A stretch of DNA of 42,160 nucleotides from a virus. Position numbers and translations under genes: made by a program. Positions 25,584 through 33,624 of this stretch are shown one piece after another. The stretch covers positions 1-42,160 of IMG/VR virus record IMGVR_UViG_3300014501_000868; one strand, 5' to 3'. How positions within the stretch are numbered: position 1 is the stretch's first letter; each line of letters starts with the position of its first letter. The notes under the pieces are model-generated. The model did not search any database and was not told the DNA's origin. It worked only from the letters and a program-made list of their open reading frames with translations.

Positions 25584-28500
25584 TCAGGCCACTGTTAACC
25601 CGGGCAACTGCATGTTGGCGGATTGCTGCGTGCGGCCATAGCTCGAATACTGCGCGGCCATGGCCTGGTCAGTCACGAACTGCGGTGTGACGAACTGGCC
25701 GGTCATGAAGTTCGCCGCGTCGGCTCCGCTGATGTTCAGCGACATGTACGTTGCTCCGCTTCCGCCACCCGTATTCGGGCTGCCCTGCGTCGGATAAACG
25801 CCCGCGCTGATGCCACCGAGCGTCGGGATGTTTGAGGCATAAACGTGAGCTTGGCCATCCTGGTAGCTGGCTTGTTGGTAAAGCTTGCCGCCCTGTTCCG
25901 CTAAGCTCCCGGCGTACGGCGTCGTTGCCGATAGCGGCATCTTCTGGCCTGTGGATTCCGAGTACAGCATCACCAGTTGACGGACGCTCGGGGACCGCAC
26001 GGCCACTCCGACATTACCGCCGAACTGTGACTGCGCGATCTGTACGATTTGCTTGATGGTGCCGCTGTTCTGCGGGATGTCCACTCCGTAGATGCTCTTG
26101 ATATCGTCGTGCGCTTTCCTCTCGGGAGACTTTATGCCGAGCAACTGCTCGACGACTCCAGCGGTGAAGCCCGCGGCCGCTCCGATTGCGGCTCCCCATG
26201 GACCGCCGATCTGCTCGCCAATCAGGGCACCTCCGGCGGTACTTTCAAGAGTGCCGCCCCACGTGCCGCGCCGTGATCCGAACAGGCCGCTGGTGGCGAG
26301 CATCATCCCGGCGGCACCGGCGGCGGGAGACTTCGCCACGCCCTGTACGCCGCCCCAGAAGTTGCTATCAGAAGCGTTCCACGCGTCCTGGTTCCAGAAC
26401 GTGCCTTTCAGATTGGAGAGCGCCTTCGAGGCGCCACCCTTGGAGAACAGGCCGTAGAGACCGGACGTTCCACCCTTGGAACCGGAACCAAGAATTGTTG
26501 CGAGCGGACTCATGCTGCCACCGGCATGAGCGCTCATCGGAAGATTCATCAGATCGCCCACGCTCGGAACGGCTGCCGGAGCCGAGCCAGCGGTAGCGAT
26601 TGGCCCAGGAAGCGATGCACCTTCACCACGTCCCGACGTGGTGGGCATGCTCACGCCGACCGACCCGGATACCGGCGCTGGAACCGAAATCGATGGAACG
26701 GAGATGCCCGATACGCCGGAAGGCCCGGTCGCCACGTGCGGAGCCGCGATTCCCATGCCAGCAGCCAGGATCGCCGTCAAACCTGCCATCACCGCGCTGT
26801 TCTGCATGGTTGCCGCCGTATTCATGTCTGTTGACGCACGCACCGGATCCTTCGATGGGCCGCGCAGCAGGCCATTGATGCCACCCTGCCCGTCCGACCC
26901 GTAGACGATCGGGTGCAGCACATTCGCGACCGCGCCGCCTAAGGTTTCGGTGATCGGCTTGAGCACCGCAGAGTGGATCGTGTTCAACAGGTCCTTGCCG
27001 AAGTTGGCAGGCTTCGTGAACAGAACGTCAATCAGCTTTTCGGCCTGCTTCTGCAAGCCGTCAATCTGCGACTGCAACTCCTCCTCGCGTTTATGCTGGA
27101 GCTGCGCTTGCTTCTCCTCGAACTGATCCTGCGCCTGGGCGAGATCGGTGAACAGATCCTTCTGCGCCTGCGCCGCCAGGACGGAACGCTTCGCCGCGTT
27201 CTCTTCTTTCGATATCCGCTCCGCTTCAATGCCAGCCAACTGGACGGCCAGATCGAGTCGGACCTGGTAGGCTTGCTGCGCGGCAGCCTCTTCCTTTCGC
27301 GCCGCCAGCTCCTTTTTTTCGGTCTCGGACATCGCTACCGGAGTATGATCACCGCCTGTCAGTTCCGCCATGCGCTGCGATCGGCCGGCCCGCCGCCGCA
27401 ACTCCTCCCGTTGCGCCTGAACCCCGATGTCTTCGATCCTTTCCTGCGCCGCGAAGCCCTCCTCCCACTCTTTCATCTGCTCCTTCGACGGCATCATGAG
27501 TGAGATCATTCTTTTCCGCTTCTCGGCGTCTTGTTTGTCCGCGTACTTCTCAAACTCCTCCCACGACTTCTTGTAGAGGACGCCCGCCTGCTTCTCTGCT
27601 GACGCGCGGATCGCCGCAATCTCGGACTCCGACGCCTTCACCTTCTCGGCCTGTTTCAGAAGCTGATCACGCAGATAGTAGATCTTGCCGGTCGCGTCGA
27701 GTTCAGATTCATCGCCCTTCTTTTCAAACTCGGCCGCCTGGCGCTGGAACTCCTTGAGCTGCTCCGCGCCCTTTGCGACCGCATCCAGTGCTGCCTTGCG
27801 GCGCGCTTCAGTAGCTTCCGCAGTGCGGAGTTGTTGGCCGAGATCCTGCGCCTGCGCCTTCGTCAGGGGCTTGTCCGGTTCGAGCAGTTGCTTCTGGAGC
27901 CGCTCGACATCCTTCTTGGCGTCGGCGTATGCCCTCTCCATGCCGTCGTGCGTGCCGAAGAACCTCGCGCGAATCCGATCCGTCTCTTCCTTGCCGGCCT
28001 GAAGATCCTTCCGCTTGGTGGCCGCCTCGGCGTCTTCCAGCATCTTCTGCAACTGCTGAATCTGGCCTTGGATTTCCTCCGCGCGTTTTGACTGAGTCTC
28101 CTCATCGCGAGTGGGAGCAATCGCTTGCAGGATGCCGAAATTGCCGGTCAACCGTTCCTGTTCGGCCCGCAGATCCTCGATGCGCTTCAAGGTGGCATCG
28201 CGGTTTTTCATGATCTCCGGCGCCTGGCGCTCCATATCAGCCACTTCCTTGCGATGGCCGCTGACCGACACGCTCGCGCCGTAACCGCCCAACGCCTTGA
28301 TCTGCGCGGCGTCTTGAAGCGCCTGGATCTCCTCGCGGTGCTCCCGTTCCTCGTCACGAGCAGTTGAGATGTTTTCGAGGAACCAGTCGACGCCCTTCCC
28401 GACCCAGGTCACGGTGACGACCAGCCCTTCCTTGAACTTGCGGACCAGCGCGTCCCATTTCGTTTCGAGCACGGTCACTTCACGCTGGTACTCGGTAAAG

Positions 28501-29498
28501 CGGCGGATATCCTCCTCGGTCGGCCCGAAGCCCTGCTCGTGGGCGACGCGCAGATTCTCGTTCAGCTCGGTCATGAACGGAATCGCCTCGATGCCGATCT
28601 TCTTAAATAGGTCCATTGCGGCGGCGTCCCGTTGAAGCCCTTCCGGGAGCTTGTTCAAACCCTCGGAGATCTCCGTCAGAAGCTCGGACGTGGGTTTCAT
28701 CTCTCCCGTGGCGGTATGGAAGTCGATGCCCATCCCACGCAACGTGGCCCGGGCTTTTTCACCTTCGTTGGAATTGTCGTTCGCCGCCTGGGACAGGCCG
28801 CGCATGAGGCGCTCGACAATCGAGATATCCTGCCCGACTGCCTTGGCCGCGAAACTGAATTGCCCGACTTCTTTCGCGGTCAAACCGGTGCGTAGTTCCG
28901 CGTCCTTCACGCGGGTTCCATATTCGCCCAGACTCTTCGCCGCCTCGAATGCGGACGCCGCGATGGTTCCAAGCACAGCAGCACCCGCCGTGACGGCGAT
29001 GCCGAAGGGACCAAGAGCCGTCATCACGGATGTGACCGCGCCTTTCGCTCCCTGGAGCGGATTCTCCATGGACTGGCTGACCCGCTCGCCGAAGGAAGTG
29101 ATGGATTCGGCCTGCTTTCGCAATGCTTCCTCGGCCTCCTTAGCCGCCTTGACTGCGAGAGCTTCGCGCGCGACCTTCTCCTCCGCGGCGATCATCTTTT
29201 CGTAGGACCGCGTGATCGCGTCAATGGCCTGCGGCTCGCGGTTGTATCGCTGCAACAGTTGATCCCGCTGCGTGATCAGCCGGTCCACGCCGCTCTTGCC
29301 GTAGGTCTCGGCCTGTTTTTCGAGCGAGGTAATCAGGCGCTGGACGCTGGATCGCGTCTGATCCGAAATCCGGATGACTTTGCCGTGCGACGATTCCGCT
29401 TGTTTCTCGAAGCGGTCAAGCCCGGCGTTGGCCTTGTCCACTACCGGACTGACCTGATCCTCGGCTTCGAGGATTACGCGTTCTGCTTGGTCTGCCAT
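25584..29498 (-). CDS. Tail tape measure protein
   Basis: A 1304-aa tape measure, the longest helical protein in the late operon. It sets tail length and is threaded through the tube, and it may help DNA enter the cell. It has long charged coiled coils (about 20-140, 370-860), a hydrophobic stretch LGPFGIAVTAGAAVLGTIAAS (about 162-182) typical of such proteins, and a Gly/Ala/Ser-rich C-terminal third with membrane-like segments. The 3.9 kb length would correspond to a tail near 190-200 nm if the usual 1.5 angstrom per residue holds (an inference). It starts 2 nt after the stop of the tail completion gene and lies after the tail tube and chaperone pair, as in lambda. Confidence 0.9.
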   Translation of the reverse strand: MADQAERVILEAEDQVSPVVDKANAGLDRFEKQAESSHGKVIRISDQTRSSVQRLITSLEKQAETYGKSGVDRLITQRDQLLQRYNREPQAIDAITRSYEKMIAAEEKVAREALAVKAAKEAEEALRKQAESITSFGERVSQSMENPLQGAKGAVTSVMTALGPFGIAVTAGAAVLGTIAASAFEAAKSLGEYGTRVKDAELRTGLTAKEVGQFSFAAKAVGQDISIVERLMRGLSQAANDNSNEGEKARATLRGMGIDFHTATGEMKPTSELLTEISEGLNKLPEGLQRDAAAMDLFKKIGIEAIPFMTELNENLRVAHEQGFGPTEEDIRRFTEYQREVTVLETKWDALVRKFKEGLVVTVTWVGKGVDWFLENISTARDEEREHREEIQALQDAAQIKALGGYGASVSVSGHRKEVADMERQAPEIMKNRDATLKRIEDLRAEQERLTGNFGILQAIAPTRDEETQSKRAEEIQGQIQQLQKMLEDAEAATKRKDLQAGKEETDRIRARFFGTHDGMERAYADAKKDVERLQKQLLEPDKPLTKAQAQDLGQQLRTAEATEARRKAALDAVAKGAEQLKEFQRQAAEFEKKGDESELDATGKIYYLRDQLLKQAEKVKASESEIAAIRASAEKQAGVLYKKSWEEFEKYADKQDAEKRKRMISLMMPSKEQMKEWEEGFAAQERIEDIGVQAQREELRRRAGRSQRMAELTGGDHTPVAMSETEKKELAARKEEAAAQQAYQVRLDLAVQLAGIEAERISKEENAAKRSVLAAQAQKDLFTDLAQAQDQFEEKQAQLQHKREEELQSQIDGLQKQAEKLIDVLFTKPANFGKDLLNTIHSAVLKPITETLGGAVANVLHPIVYGSDGQGGINGLLRGPSKDPVRASTDMNTAATMQNSAVMAGLTAILAAGMGIAAPHVATGPSGVSGISVPSISVPAPVSGSVGVSMPTTSGRGEGASLPGPIATAGSAPAAVPSVGDLMNLPMSAHAGGSMSPLATILGSGSKGGTSGLYGLFSKGGASKALSNLKGTFWNQDAWNASDSNFWGGVQGVAKSPAAGAAGMMLATSGLFGSRRGTWGGTLESTAGGALIGEQIGGPWGAAIGAAAGFTAGVVEQLLGIKSPERKAHDDIKSIYGVDIPQNSGTIKQIVQIAQSQFGGNVGVAVRSPSVRQLVMLYSESTGQKMPLSATTPYAGSLAEQGGKLYQQASYQDGQAHVYASNIPTLGGISAGVYPTQGSPNTGGGSGATYMSLNISGADAANFMTGQFVTPQFVTDQAMAAQYSSYGRTQQSANMQLPGLTVA

Positions 29499-30183: not shown

Positions 30184-31299
30184 ATGAGTAATGCACAGCA
30201 CACAAAGGAAGAGGTAAGCGATTTTAAGTCGAAGGATTTCCGTCTCGTCCTGGCCAGACGACAAGCGGTTGAAGAAATAAAGAAGATCACACCGCCAAAG
30301 ACTGACAAAGAGTTGAGGGCCAAAATGAGGAAGGTCGCGACTGCCGTGGCAGCGAAGCTCAACACCTCACCAGTTGTTGCGCTTTCCGCTTACATCGATC
30401 CCAAACTATGGGAAAAGTGGCAGTCGGCGTCAAGACCATCACGCAAGTCGCCAAAGTACTCGGTCGTTTTCGCGAAAGCGAAGAAATGTGAGGAGCTTTT
30501 GGCCCACCTCTTTCGCGCACGTTGGAAGGCAGTGGAGGCAGATTTTGCTAACGGCGTTGACGTGGCGAGGGCGCGCGCGCATTGTTTCCTTTCCGGCGAA
30601 AGCCGTGCACGCTTACGCACAGCCAGACGCTATTACACTCCTGCACGCGCCACCCGCTTTGCCAACTCCTCAATTGACGAGATTGTAGAGTTGTGCTGGG
30701 CGTGGTTTAATCCCTTTCAGGTTTTCGCGTATGACAGTGGGAACGATTTGACTGAAATCGGCGATCAGATGGAAGAGTTAGTTCGCAGCGAGTACGTCGC
30801 TATGACGTGGGGACTGTTTGAAAATCTGCCGTGCTACACCGAAAGCACCGCGCATTTTGATACTGCATTCCCTGAGGATGTCGAGGAATTTTACCGGTGC
30901 CACTCTCCCCATGTGTATCCTCTTCCCGATTTGACTACCAAATACGGTGACGTCTATGAGGCGATTGTCTACTCCTACCGAGGCGAGCGCCTGCGAGTGT
31001 GCAAGTCGATTGCGGAGCCATTTCTTGAGGCCGAGCGCGTTGACGCCATGGATGAGATAGAGCAAGGGTTCCTGCAAAACGCTTCCGAAGAGGGCGACGA
31101 CCCGCGAACCTGGAGGGTAAACTTCCGTCGTCTCACAACATTCCTTCTTCCTGAATACAGCCGGGCGTTGATTGAGGCTGATATCCTCGGCGACGTGGGA
31201 AGTCCGGGAGAGAAAGAGGACTTCCGGATGCTTAAAGAAGAACTCAAGGCGAACGGTAACGGTTATCTCAAGAGATCGCGCGTGCGGATTCATGGATAG
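30184..31299 (+). CDS. Unknown protein, single plus-strand cargo gene
   Basis: A 371-aa soluble protein, the only plus-strand gene inside the leftward tail operon. I do not recognise a family. It has no signal peptide, membrane segment or zinc cluster. The N-terminal 50 residues are Lys/Glu-rich and helical (RRQAVEEIKKITPPK), and the central part carries aromatic and acidic segments (EIVELCWAWFNPFQVFAYD, CHSPHVYPLPDLTTKYG). The C-terminus is basic (RSRVRIHG). Its base composition is visibly more A+T-rich than the flanking phage genes, which suggests recent acquisition. The start codon lacks a good ribosome site. It is inserted between the tail assembly genes and the tail completion gene, the same kind of place as the defence modules, so a single-gene defence or lysogenic conversion role is possible but unproven. 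Confidence 0.75.
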   Translation: MSNAQHTKEEVSDFKSKDFRLVLARRQAVEEIKKITPPKTDKELRAKMRKVATAVAAKLNTSPVVALSAYIDPKLWEKWQSASRPSRKSPKYSVVFAKAKKCEELLAHLFRARWKAVEADFANGVDVARARAHCFLSGESRARLRTARRYYTPARATRFANSSIDEIVELCWAWFNPFQVFAYDSGNDLTEIGDQMEELVRSEYVAMTWGLFENLPCYTESTAHFDTAFPEDVEEFYRCHSPHVYPLPDLTTKYGDVYEAIVYSYRGERLRVCKSIAEPFLEAERVDAMDEIEQGFLQNASEEGDDPRTWRVNFRRLTTFLLPEYSRALIEADILGDVGSPGEKEDFRMLKEELKANGNGYLKRSRVRIHG

Positions 31300-31335: not shown

Positions 31336-31548
31336 TCAATCTCCCCAGTGGTCACGTATAATTTGGTCGAACTTCTCCCAAGAAAGATGCCGTTTCTGTT
31401 TCTTGTACGGACGCCACTCGATGCCGCCTTTGCTCACCAGAAGAGTCCCGAGTTTAGCGTTTTCATCACCTCCGATCTCAAAACGCATGTCTTTCTTGCC
31501 CACTTCCAGCTCGGGTATTCGGGTCAGCTTGACGGTGTGTTGAGCCAT
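31336..31548 (-). CDS. Small hypothetical phage protein
   Basis: A 70-aa basic protein beginning MAQHTVKLTRIPELEVG and ending WEKFDQIIRDHWGD. It lies 17 nt downstream of the zinc-ribbon T-like ORF and converges on the plus-strand cargo gene. No domain is recognised. The pattern of a short beta hairpin (FEIGGDEN, GTLLVSKGGIEWRPY) and a C-terminal helix fits small phage or regulatory proteins. The longer frame from 31857 is discarded because its first 100 residues lie antisense to, or out of frame with, the T-like ORF. Confidence 0.5.
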   Translation of the reverse strand: MAQHTVKLTRIPELEVGKKDMRFEIGGDENAKLGTLLVSKGGIEWRPYKKQKRHLSWEKFDQIIRDHWGD

Positions 31549-31565: not shown

Positions 31566-31982
31566 TCACTTTCTCTTGCCATGGTCGCCACCGTTGATCC
31601 GTTCCTGTCGCTCGGTCTCGATCAGCTCCAGCACTCGGAATTCCTCCTCCGTAATATCCGCGAGCGTGATGGTCAACCCGATGTTCTTCGCGTTGAGAAT
31701 GCGGAAGCACCGCCGAACCAGAGCGCCGTTCGGTGTGTCCATCGCCTCTTCGAGCAGGTTCTTGGGACAACCAGGCCCGTGACTGACGTCGATGGCCTTC
31801 CAATCCGCGCCGCACGCAGGGCAGCCATCCAACTCCGCGTGCGCAGAGTATCCGCACTTCCGGCAGCGGAAGACGCGGTCGGGACAGTCTTCTTCAGACC
31901 CACAGAGCGTCCCCTGTTGCAGGACCGACCGGATCAGGAAGTGAACGCCCGGGTCTTCCGGCCAGTCGCCGGGCGTGGCTAT
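31566..31982 (-). CDS. T-like tail assembly chaperone extension with zinc ribbon, no standard start codon
   Basis: An ORF of about 138 codons in the -1 frame relative to the upstream G-like gene. Coding character is clear from 31982 downward: GDWPEDPGVHFLIRSVLQQG, then a zinc ribbon with Cys40 and Cys43 (FRCRKCGYS) and Cys54 and Cys57 (DGCPACGADW). The only ATG/GTG/TTG in the frame is a TTG at 31832, which would cut the zinc ribbon in half. The frame overlaps the G-like stop codon at the codon ATA (31980-31982). In lambda, gpG and gpGT are made from overlapping -1 frames, between the tail tube and tape measure, so this is probably produced as a G-T fusion by frameshifting or from an ATA start. 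I saw no canonical slippery heptamer near the end of the G-like gene. Confidence 0.6.
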   Translation of the reverse strand: MATPGDWPEDPGVHFLIRSVLQQGTLCGSEEDCPDRVFRCRKCGYSAHAELDGCPACGADWKAIDVSHGPGCPKNLLEEAMDTPNGALVRRCFRILNAKNIGLTITLADITEEEFRVLELIETERQERINGGDHGKRK

Positions 31983-32587
31983 TCCGGGTCTTCGTCTGCT
32001 TCGATCGCCAGTTGCGCGATCACCTCGGAGACCGCCGCCGACTTGTGGACGATCGGCACGGCGCCGGCATAACCATCGTGCGAGACATGCAACTTGTCGT
32101 AGAGCGCGCCGCTCGGTTCCAAGAACGCGCGGGTCTCGACGGATCTGCGCGCGGCGACGACGCTGGTCGAACCACGTTCGTGGTCCTGCATCTCCTTGGC
32201 GGTCGGCATGCGCAGCACATGAACCACGCGGGCGCCAGGGACCTTCATCTCGATTCGGTAGTTGATCCCTTCGCGCTCAACATGGGCCACAGCGCAGCGC
32301 TCGACCCGCCCGATCACCATGCCGGCCTCAGCATCATCGAACTCGGGACCATCCTTGTCGGTGCGAATCTTGGCGAACAGTTCGGCGTTGATCTTCGGCA
32401 GATCCACGTCCTCACTTTGCGATTTTCCGCGCCCTAGGAAATGCCGAACAGTGCGCTGCGCACGCGCCCACGCGCACCACTCTTCGTCCGAGGGGAACCG
32501 CACCTCGCAGGTCTTTTCACCGCCTGAGAGAATCGGGACGACGAACGGCTTCGTTGCGTCGAAGCCCGCTTTCTTTTCGGTTTCCAT
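31979..32587 (-). CDS. G-like tail assembly chaperone candidate
   Basis: A 202-aa protein just after the tail tube gene and before the T-like frame. AGGAG lies 6 nt before the ATG, and the tail tube stop overlaps this site. The N-terminus has METEKKAGFDATKPF and SGGEKTCEVRFPSDEEWCAWA. The C-terminus is acidic (AIEADEDPE). Lambda gpG-type proteins bind the tape measure and prevent premature polymerisation; position, size and the overlapping -1 frame suggest the same role here. Sequence families of these chaperones are poorly conserved, so the assignment rests on context. Confidence 0.55.
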   Translation of the reverse strand: METEKKAGFDATKPFVVPILSGGEKTCEVRFPSDEEWCAWARAQRTVRHFLGRGKSQSEDVDLPKINAELFAKIRTDKDGPEFDDAEAGMVIGRVERCAVAHVEREGINYRIEMKVPGARVVHVLRMPTAKEMQDHERGSTSVVAARRSVETRAFLEPSGALYDKLHVSHDGYAGAVPIVHKSAAVSEVIAQLAIEADEDPE

Positions 32588-32595
32588 ATGAACTC

Positions 32596-33624
32596 CTATT
32601 GGCAGATGCCCGTTAACGGCGTGATGATGGTCATCGTCACCAGCCCGTTGGTGGCGTCGTAGAGTTGAACGCCGGTGATCTGGAGCGTCACGATGCCTTC
32701 CGTGTTTCCCAGCTCGGCGACGCTGAAGCCCATCTTCTGGATGAGCATCGAGAAGGAATTGTTGGCGTCGCGCGCCATGGTGAACGTGGCCGTCCCGGTC
32801 GTTAGGTTGATCAGGTTCGAATACTCGGTCGATCCGGCCTGGACGCGCACCACGAACTGCACCGCGAAGGCGCGATCTCCCCACTCGAATCGTCCCTGGA
32901 TCTGGTAGCCATCCTGCGCACCCGAGCCAGGGAAGAAGCCGGGCCGGAAGTTGTTTTCCCATGACGCTTCCATGGAGACGAACTGCTTCGCGCTGCCGCC
33001 CGAAAGGTAGTTGATCCCGTTGAAGGTTAACGCGGTGATCATGCCGGCATTGAATTCATGCGGCGTCGAAACGGCGGGCAGCGTGATGCCGCTGGGAGAG
33101 GTGTACTGACCCGTGGTCATGCATTCCACCGAGCACATCGCGCTGGCGCGGCCCGGGCTGTTCTTGATCGACAGCTTCCACGATTTGACGGCGCACCCCA
33201 CCAGCATTTCGTCCAACACCGCAGACCCACCGGGCCGGATCTGCTGCACGAACGAGAAGTACGGCAACTCGAGGCCGGTCGCGTTCGTGGCGCCCAAGGC
33301 CGGAACGATGACATACGTATAGGGACCGCTGCCGGTCAGGGTGACGTTCCCCATAGAGAAGCACATCGCCCAAGCGAGAAACTCCGATGAGGCGTACTTC
33401 GAAAGCTCGAAAGGCGGCATGTTGTAGTGCGACCTGAAAAGCTGCGTCGGGAACTCATGGCCCTTGCCGATTTCGGCCCGATCATCCTCGTTCACCGGGA
33501 CTTTCGCCCACGGCTTGGTATTGAGGTTGGTCTGACGCCAGATCGCCGTCGACGTGTTGGCCGTCCCGATGGCTGTCTGTTTGCCGAAGCCCCAGCCCTC
33601 CATCAACTCGTTGACGTTTGCCAT
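32596..33624 (-). CDS. Major tail tube protein
   Basis: A 342-aa beta-rich protein, expected to form the hexameric rings of a non-contractile tail tube. Its start MANVNELMEGWGFGKQTAIGTA is like other siphovirus tail tube proteins, and it has the typical FPTQLFRSHYNMPPFELSKYASSEFLAWA segment in the first third (cited in parts: FRSHYNMP, SSEFLAWA). The ATG at 33624 has GGAGG upstream, and the preceding small gene ends 2 nt before it. A Thr/Gly-rich C-terminal part probably forms an Ig-like or surface domain. Gene order (neck, tube, chaperones, tape measure) agrees with lambda. Confidence 0.75.
   Translation of the reverse strand: MANVNELMEGWGFGKQTAIGTANTSTAIWRQTNLNTKPWAKVPVNEDDRAEIGKGHEFPTQLFRSHYNMPPFELSKYASSEFLAWAMCFSMGNVTLTGSGPYTYVIVPALGATNATGLELPYFSFVQQIRPGGSAVLDEMLVGCAVKSWKLSIKNSPGRASAMCSVECMTTGQYTSPSGITLPAVSTPHEFNAGMITALTFNGINYLSGGSAKQFVSMEASWENNFRPGFFPGSGAQDGYQIQGRFEWGDRAFAVQFVVRVQAGSTEYSNLINLTTGTATFTMARDANNSFSMLIQKMGFSVAELGNTEGIVTLQITGVQLYDATNGLVTMTIITPLTGICQ

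What the first reader, a model, noticed from the sequence alone, without database searches (positions are those of the whole stretch)
31566..32587. Tail chaperone pair with a -1 frame and no standard start codon
The T-like frame has strong coding character and a four-Cys zinc ribbon that begins 50 codons before its only TTG start. It lies in the -1 frame relative to the G-like gene and enters at an ATA overlapping the G-like TAG. This is the lambda G/GT arrangement, but no canonical slippery heptamer is evident, so a new frameshift signal, an ATA start or a sequence error are all possible.
Basis: partly seen in the sequence, partly recalled or inferred. Interest (0 to 1): 0.6.

Follow-up and report, generated by a model that had tools for sequence, protein, structure and literature searches.

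The report
Phage tail chaperone frameshift at CCCGGAA
The two overlapping genes look like the usual phage tail-assembly pair, in which some ribosomes slip back one base at the end of the first gene to make a longer fused protein; the slip site here, CCCGGAA, is an unusual one that replaces the textbook site CCCAAAC found at the same place in related phages.

Summary
G (32587-31979, -, 202 aa) is followed in the -1 frame by a conserved zinc-ribbon frame T (31982-31566) with no usable start; its only ATG/GTG/TTG (31832) cuts the zinc ribbon. About 95 relatives from soil and peat phages and Acidobacteriota MAGs keep this arrangement, so it is not a sequencing error. PRFect (PMC10885494) lists CCCGGAA as the commonest 'threetwotwo' slippery motif of annotated actinophage tail-chaperone frameshifts, explained by G:U re-pairing of tRNA-Glu on GGA. 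In 120 distant homologous junctions (G about 31-41% identical), T is again in the -1 frame, almost never with a start codon, and 116 carry a canonical heptamer (CCCAAAC 113) aligned with CCCGGAA ('DPN*' versus 'DPE*'). The 'ATA' is simply GAA+TAG. Best reading: lambda-type G/GT -1 programmed frameshifting at a non-canonical heptamer. An AUA start (ATG in 5/96) is the main rival: no Shine-Dalgarno is present, and the Glu codon that would create one is avoided (GAA 74/74). Unexplained: 7/96 phages break the CCC. Nothing was tested experimentally.

The parts
31979..32587 (-). G-like gene: tail assembly chaperone by position, 202 aa, stop TAG 31981-31979
   Evidence: between the phrog_290 tail protein (32596-33624) and the tape measure (25584-29498); 135 relatives in IMG/VR
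31982..31988 (-). slip site C CCG GAA directly before the TAG stop
   Evidence: aligned with canonical C CCA AAC of sister clades; in-frame CCCGGAA occurs at this place in 89/96 and nowhere else in the G genes of the clade; last four G codons show almost no synonymous change; motif named in PMC10885494
31977..31981 (-). 5-nt spacer UAGCC (G stop plus CC)
31945..31976 (-). stem-loop ACGCCCGG...CCGGGCGU (arms 31976-31969 and 31952-31945), likely frameshift stimulator
   Evidence: -16.7 kcal/mol, z -1.22 alone; 7 stem pairs formed in 96% of cells over 78 sequences against at most 57% when slid; one two-sided change (C-G to G-C in 2 sequences)
31566..31982 (-). T-like frame (-1), zinc ribbon plus C-terminal helices, 138 codons; read as C-terminal part of a predicted 340-aa G-T fusion
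   Evidence: AlphaFold2 model mean pLDDT 84.9

Best explanation
It is a lambda-type G/GT tail assembly chaperone pair of an Acidobacteriota-associated siphophage. Most ribosomes end at the G stop and make G (202 aa). A minority, paused by the stem-loop 5 nt downstream, slip back one base on C CCG GAA: tRNA-Pro moves from CCG to CCC and tRNA-Glu from GAA to GGA (middle U:G pair). They then read AUA and go on through T, giving a 340-aa G-T fusion whose zinc-ribbon tail would, as in lambda, link G on the tape measure to the major tail protein. Shown here: frame, conservation, homology of the site to canonical heptamers, and synonymous constraint. Inferred: that slippage happens, which tRNAs slip, its efficiency, and the assembly role.
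For: Distant homologues in Bryobacterales-family genomes and soil viral contigs keep T in -1; canonical heptamers lie in the last three codons of G in 116 of 120 (CCCAAAC 113, AAATTTT 2, GGGAAAC 1), and 116 of 120 have no ATG/GTG/TTG in the T frame near the junction. Protein alignment puts ...DPN* (C CCA AAC) on ...DPE* (C CCG GAA). In-frame CCCGGAA: 89 at this place, 0 elsewhere in the same genes. Synonymous freeze of GAA GAC CCG GAA (0-0.02 against mostly 0.2-0.7), although Glu is 78% GAG in these genes. T-frame stops lie within 10 codons upstream in 46/96 (as near as 2), so the T reading must begin at this site. Downstream stem conserved in position across indels, and folding stronger than synonymous recodings in all three clades. 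The motif is already the commonest 'threetwotwo' slippery motif in annotated actinophage tail chaperones. The gene order major tail protein-G-T-tape measure is shared with sister clades.
Against: 7/96 phages lack CCC (CTCGGAA 5, ATCGGAA 1, TCCGGAA 1) in about 7 tree changes, which weakens re-pairing of the first tRNA there. CCCGGAA has no experimental proof that I found. The stem is mostly invariant, so covariation support is thin, and the single-sequence z-score in the window is only -1.2. G matches no known chaperone by sequence or fold.
Confidence: 0.87

Rival explanations
1. T is a separate protein started at AUA (AUG in some relatives) by termination-reinitiation: ribosomes ending at the overlapping stop restart on the AUA, the weak start keeping T scarce.
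For: All 96 junctions give ATA or ATG at that place; 5 have a real ATG (L008, L049, L063, L157, L158). GAA, which supplies the A, is invariant.
Against: ATA/ATG is forced by GAA followed by any stop. There is no Shine-Dalgarno; the Glu codon at -4, where GAG would make GAGGA about 6 nt before the ATA, is GAA in 74/74 despite 78% GAG elsewhere. Homologues with CCCAAAC have almost never a start, so the ancestral T is reached by frameshift. TGA rarity is not informative, because the upstream tail gene is equally TAG-rich.
Confidence: 0.09
2. Variant of the best explanation: slippage needs only the last tRNA. tRNA-Glu in the P site moves from GAA to GGA while the stop codon waits in the A site (GGAA-UAR), so the CCC is dispensable.
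For: GGAA followed by a stop is the only element invariant in 96/96; the 7 sequences without CCC keep it.
Against: CCC is kept in 89/96 and the Pro codon is always CCG; the canonical relatives use two-tRNA heptamers.
Confidence: 0.12
3. T is a decayed remnant, or the frame break is a sequencing error.
For: A few relatives have truncated or broken T or G (L001, L048, L159).
Against: 96/96 distinct junctions keep T open for at least 90 codons; strong protein conservation in independent samples.
Confidence: 0.01

Closest known systems
Phage lambda G/GT tail assembly chaperones (-1 frameshift; summarised in PMC5009743)
   Same: G then T in -1 between major tail protein and tape measure; short protein plus rarer fusion expected
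   Different: No detectable sequence or fold similarity found; slip site CCCGGAA directly before the stop; T carries a zinc ribbon
PRFect 'threetwotwo' motif CCCGGAA and 'fivetwo' GGGGGAA in SEA-PHAGES tail chaperones (PMC10885494); GGGGGAA in corynephage phi16 (PMC5506516)
   Same: Identical heptamer CCCGGAA, or the same tRNA-Glu to GGA re-pairing
   Different: Those are annotation-based predictions in actinophages; here Acidobacteriota-associated phages, with homologous canonical sites for comparison
Sister clades found here (L274-L300, L305-L426) with C CCA AAC
   Same: Homologous G and T, same frame and gene order, site at the same codons
   Different: Canonical heptamer; often one extra codon before the stop; most clade A members have a much shorter Cys region in T

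Membership tests
lambda-type G/GT tail assembly chaperone | Two overlapping genes between major tail protein and tape measure | tested here: met
   (phrog_290 tail protein upstream, phrog_12506 tape measure downstream)
lambda-type G/GT tail assembly chaperone | Second frame in -1 (or -2/+1), without its own start | tested here: met
lambda-type G/GT tail assembly chaperone | Slippery site near the end of G | tested here: met
   CCCGGAA (non-canonical, proposed motif) 89/96; canonical in 116 of 120 distant homologues
canonical XXXYYYZ heptamer | Y YYZ with three identical Y | tested here: not met
   GGA A: matches only if middle G:U pairing is allowed (sequence; argument in PMC10885494)
lambda-type G/GT tail assembly chaperone | Sequence or fold similarity to a known chaperone family | tested here: inconclusive
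   no PHROG or Pfam match for G, no Foldseek match with E<=0.001; known families are mutually very divergent (own knowledge), so this is not a defining feature and lowers rather than excludes membership
lambda-type G/GT tail assembly chaperone | Fusion protein made in low ratio and absent from the virion | not testable with these tools
   needs proteomics

The most novel reading that the evidence does not exclude
In at least the seven phages with CTC/ATC/TCC before GGAA, and perhaps the whole clade, -1 slippage rests on one tRNA-Glu re-pairing from GAA to GGA next to a stop codon (or has been replaced by AUA/AUG reinitiation), i.e. a tail chaperone fusion without a two-tRNA slippery heptamer.
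Probability: 0.2. Interest if true: 0.6.

Novelty: new member of a known kind. Interest (0 to 1): 0.4.

Why it matters
CCCGGAA was so far a pattern noted in annotated actinophages. Here a large phage clade outside the actinobacteria shows it standing, codon for codon, where relatives have the canonical CCCAAAC, with synonymous sites frozen around it. That is independent comparative evidence that slip sites with a middle G:U pair work, and the natural variants (CTCGGAA, ATCGGAA, TCCGGAA, and ATGA junctions) make the rule directly testable. Gene callers will miss T in most of these phages because it has no standard start codon.

Tried and rejected
AUA start (kept as rival). TGA avoidance as evidence against or for initiation: dropped, because neighbouring tail genes have the same stop bias. 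Start further upstream in the T frame: rejected, T-frame stops lie as near as 2 codons upstream of the ATA. Start at TTG 31832: rejected, it cuts the zinc ribbon. Gordonia phage Azira gene 24 hit (E 0.05): rejected, lies in a lysis region. Fold searches for G and T gave no E<=0.001 match. The genome search 'relatives' is not available for a virus record.

Full report
Observation. On the minus strand the window carries a G-like gene (32587-31979) and, overlapping its TAG by the ATAG arrangement, a -1 frame of 138 codons (31982-31566) whose first ATG/GTG/TTG is TTG 31832, inside the zinc ribbon. Upstream is a tail protein matching phrog_290; downstream is the tape measure, matching phrog_12506. 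G has no PHROG or Pfam match and T only weak zinc-ribbon hits.

Relatives. IMG/VR scans found 135 G relatives and 84 T relatives, and GTDB contigs tie the clade to Acidobacteriota MAGs (Bryobacterales, Solibacteraceae). Over 96 distinct junctions, the window included, the codon before the stop is always GAA, the one before it CCG (90) or TCG (6), and the stop is TAG 84, TAA 7 or TGA 5. ATA or, with TGA, ATG therefore follows automatically. In 46 of 96 a T-frame stop lies within 10 codons upstream, at nearest 2 codons, so the entry into T is confined to the last codons of G.

Distant homologues. A profile search in the genomes holding these prophages, then in 150 genomes of the same family (33 with a match), and two further viral scans gave 120 distinct junctions from two sister clades; G is about 31-41% identical and T about 24-35%. 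T is again in -1. Canonical heptamers sit in the last three codons of G in 116 of 120: C CCA AAC in 113, A AAT TTT in 2, G GGA AAC in 1; 116 of 120 have no ATG/GTG/TTG in the T frame near the junction. Frameshifting is the straightforward reading there. Aligned, '...DPN*' (C CCA AAC) stands over '...DPE*' (C CCG GAA).

The slip site. C CCG GAA differs from the textbook heptamer because GAA would re-pair on GGA with a U:G pair in the middle. The PRFect paper (PMC10885494) lists exactly CCCGGAA as the commonest 'threetwotwo' motif of annotated SEA-PHAGES tail-chaperone frameshifts and offers the same explanation, also for GGGGGAA; corynephage phi16 is proposed to use GGGGGAA (PMC5506516). In-frame CCCGGAA occurs 89 times at this place and never elsewhere in the same G genes. 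The last four G codons hardly vary synonymously, although GAG is 78% of Glu codons in these genes.

The stem. An 8-bp stem begins 5 nt after the heptamer in the window. Across 78 distinct sequences, including 20 with one codon fewer in the loop, seven pairs form in 96% of cells against at most 57% when one arm is slid; one pair changes on both sides in two sequences. Folding is stronger than in synonymous recodings: mean z -0.74 in the window clade and -1.54 and -2.24 in the sister clades, with controls of -0.24 to -0.44. In the window clade this is modest evidence.

AUA start. Five relatives have ATG there, in separate places on the tree. But no Shine-Dalgarno is present, and the one codon whose common synonym would create GAGGA about 6 nt before the ATA is GAA in 74 of 74. 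This suggests that independent initiation is disfavoured, though the same bias could serve the slip site. TGA rarity is not evidence, because the neighbouring tail gene shows the same bias.

Open points. Seven phages with CTC, ATC or TCC in place of CCC keep everything else; either the Pro/Ser tRNA need not re-pair well, or these use another route. AlphaFold2 models are confident (G 84.8, T 84.9 mean pLDDT) but match nothing with E<=0.001, so 'tail chaperone' rests on position and on the G/GT arrangement.

Noticed in passing
30184-31299 (+) and 31336-31548 (-): A 371-aa ORF on the opposite strand and a 70-aa ORF lie between T and the next tail gene; neither has a match in any other of the ~460 fetched loci: probably a window-specific insertion in the tail operon.
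   Followed up: partly
G003 (L265, L266, L271, L273-L277): One Solibacteraceae MAG holds six G homologues from all three clades, suggesting several prophages in one genome or bin.
   Followed up: no
L280, L284, L294, L296: Four sister-clade members have a degenerate or displaced heptamer (A AGT TTT; AAATTTT 24 nt before a later G stop), perhaps further slip-site variants.
   Followed up: no
L001, L048, L050, L159: Broken or truncated T or G in a few contigs, from sequencing error or decay.
   Followed up: no
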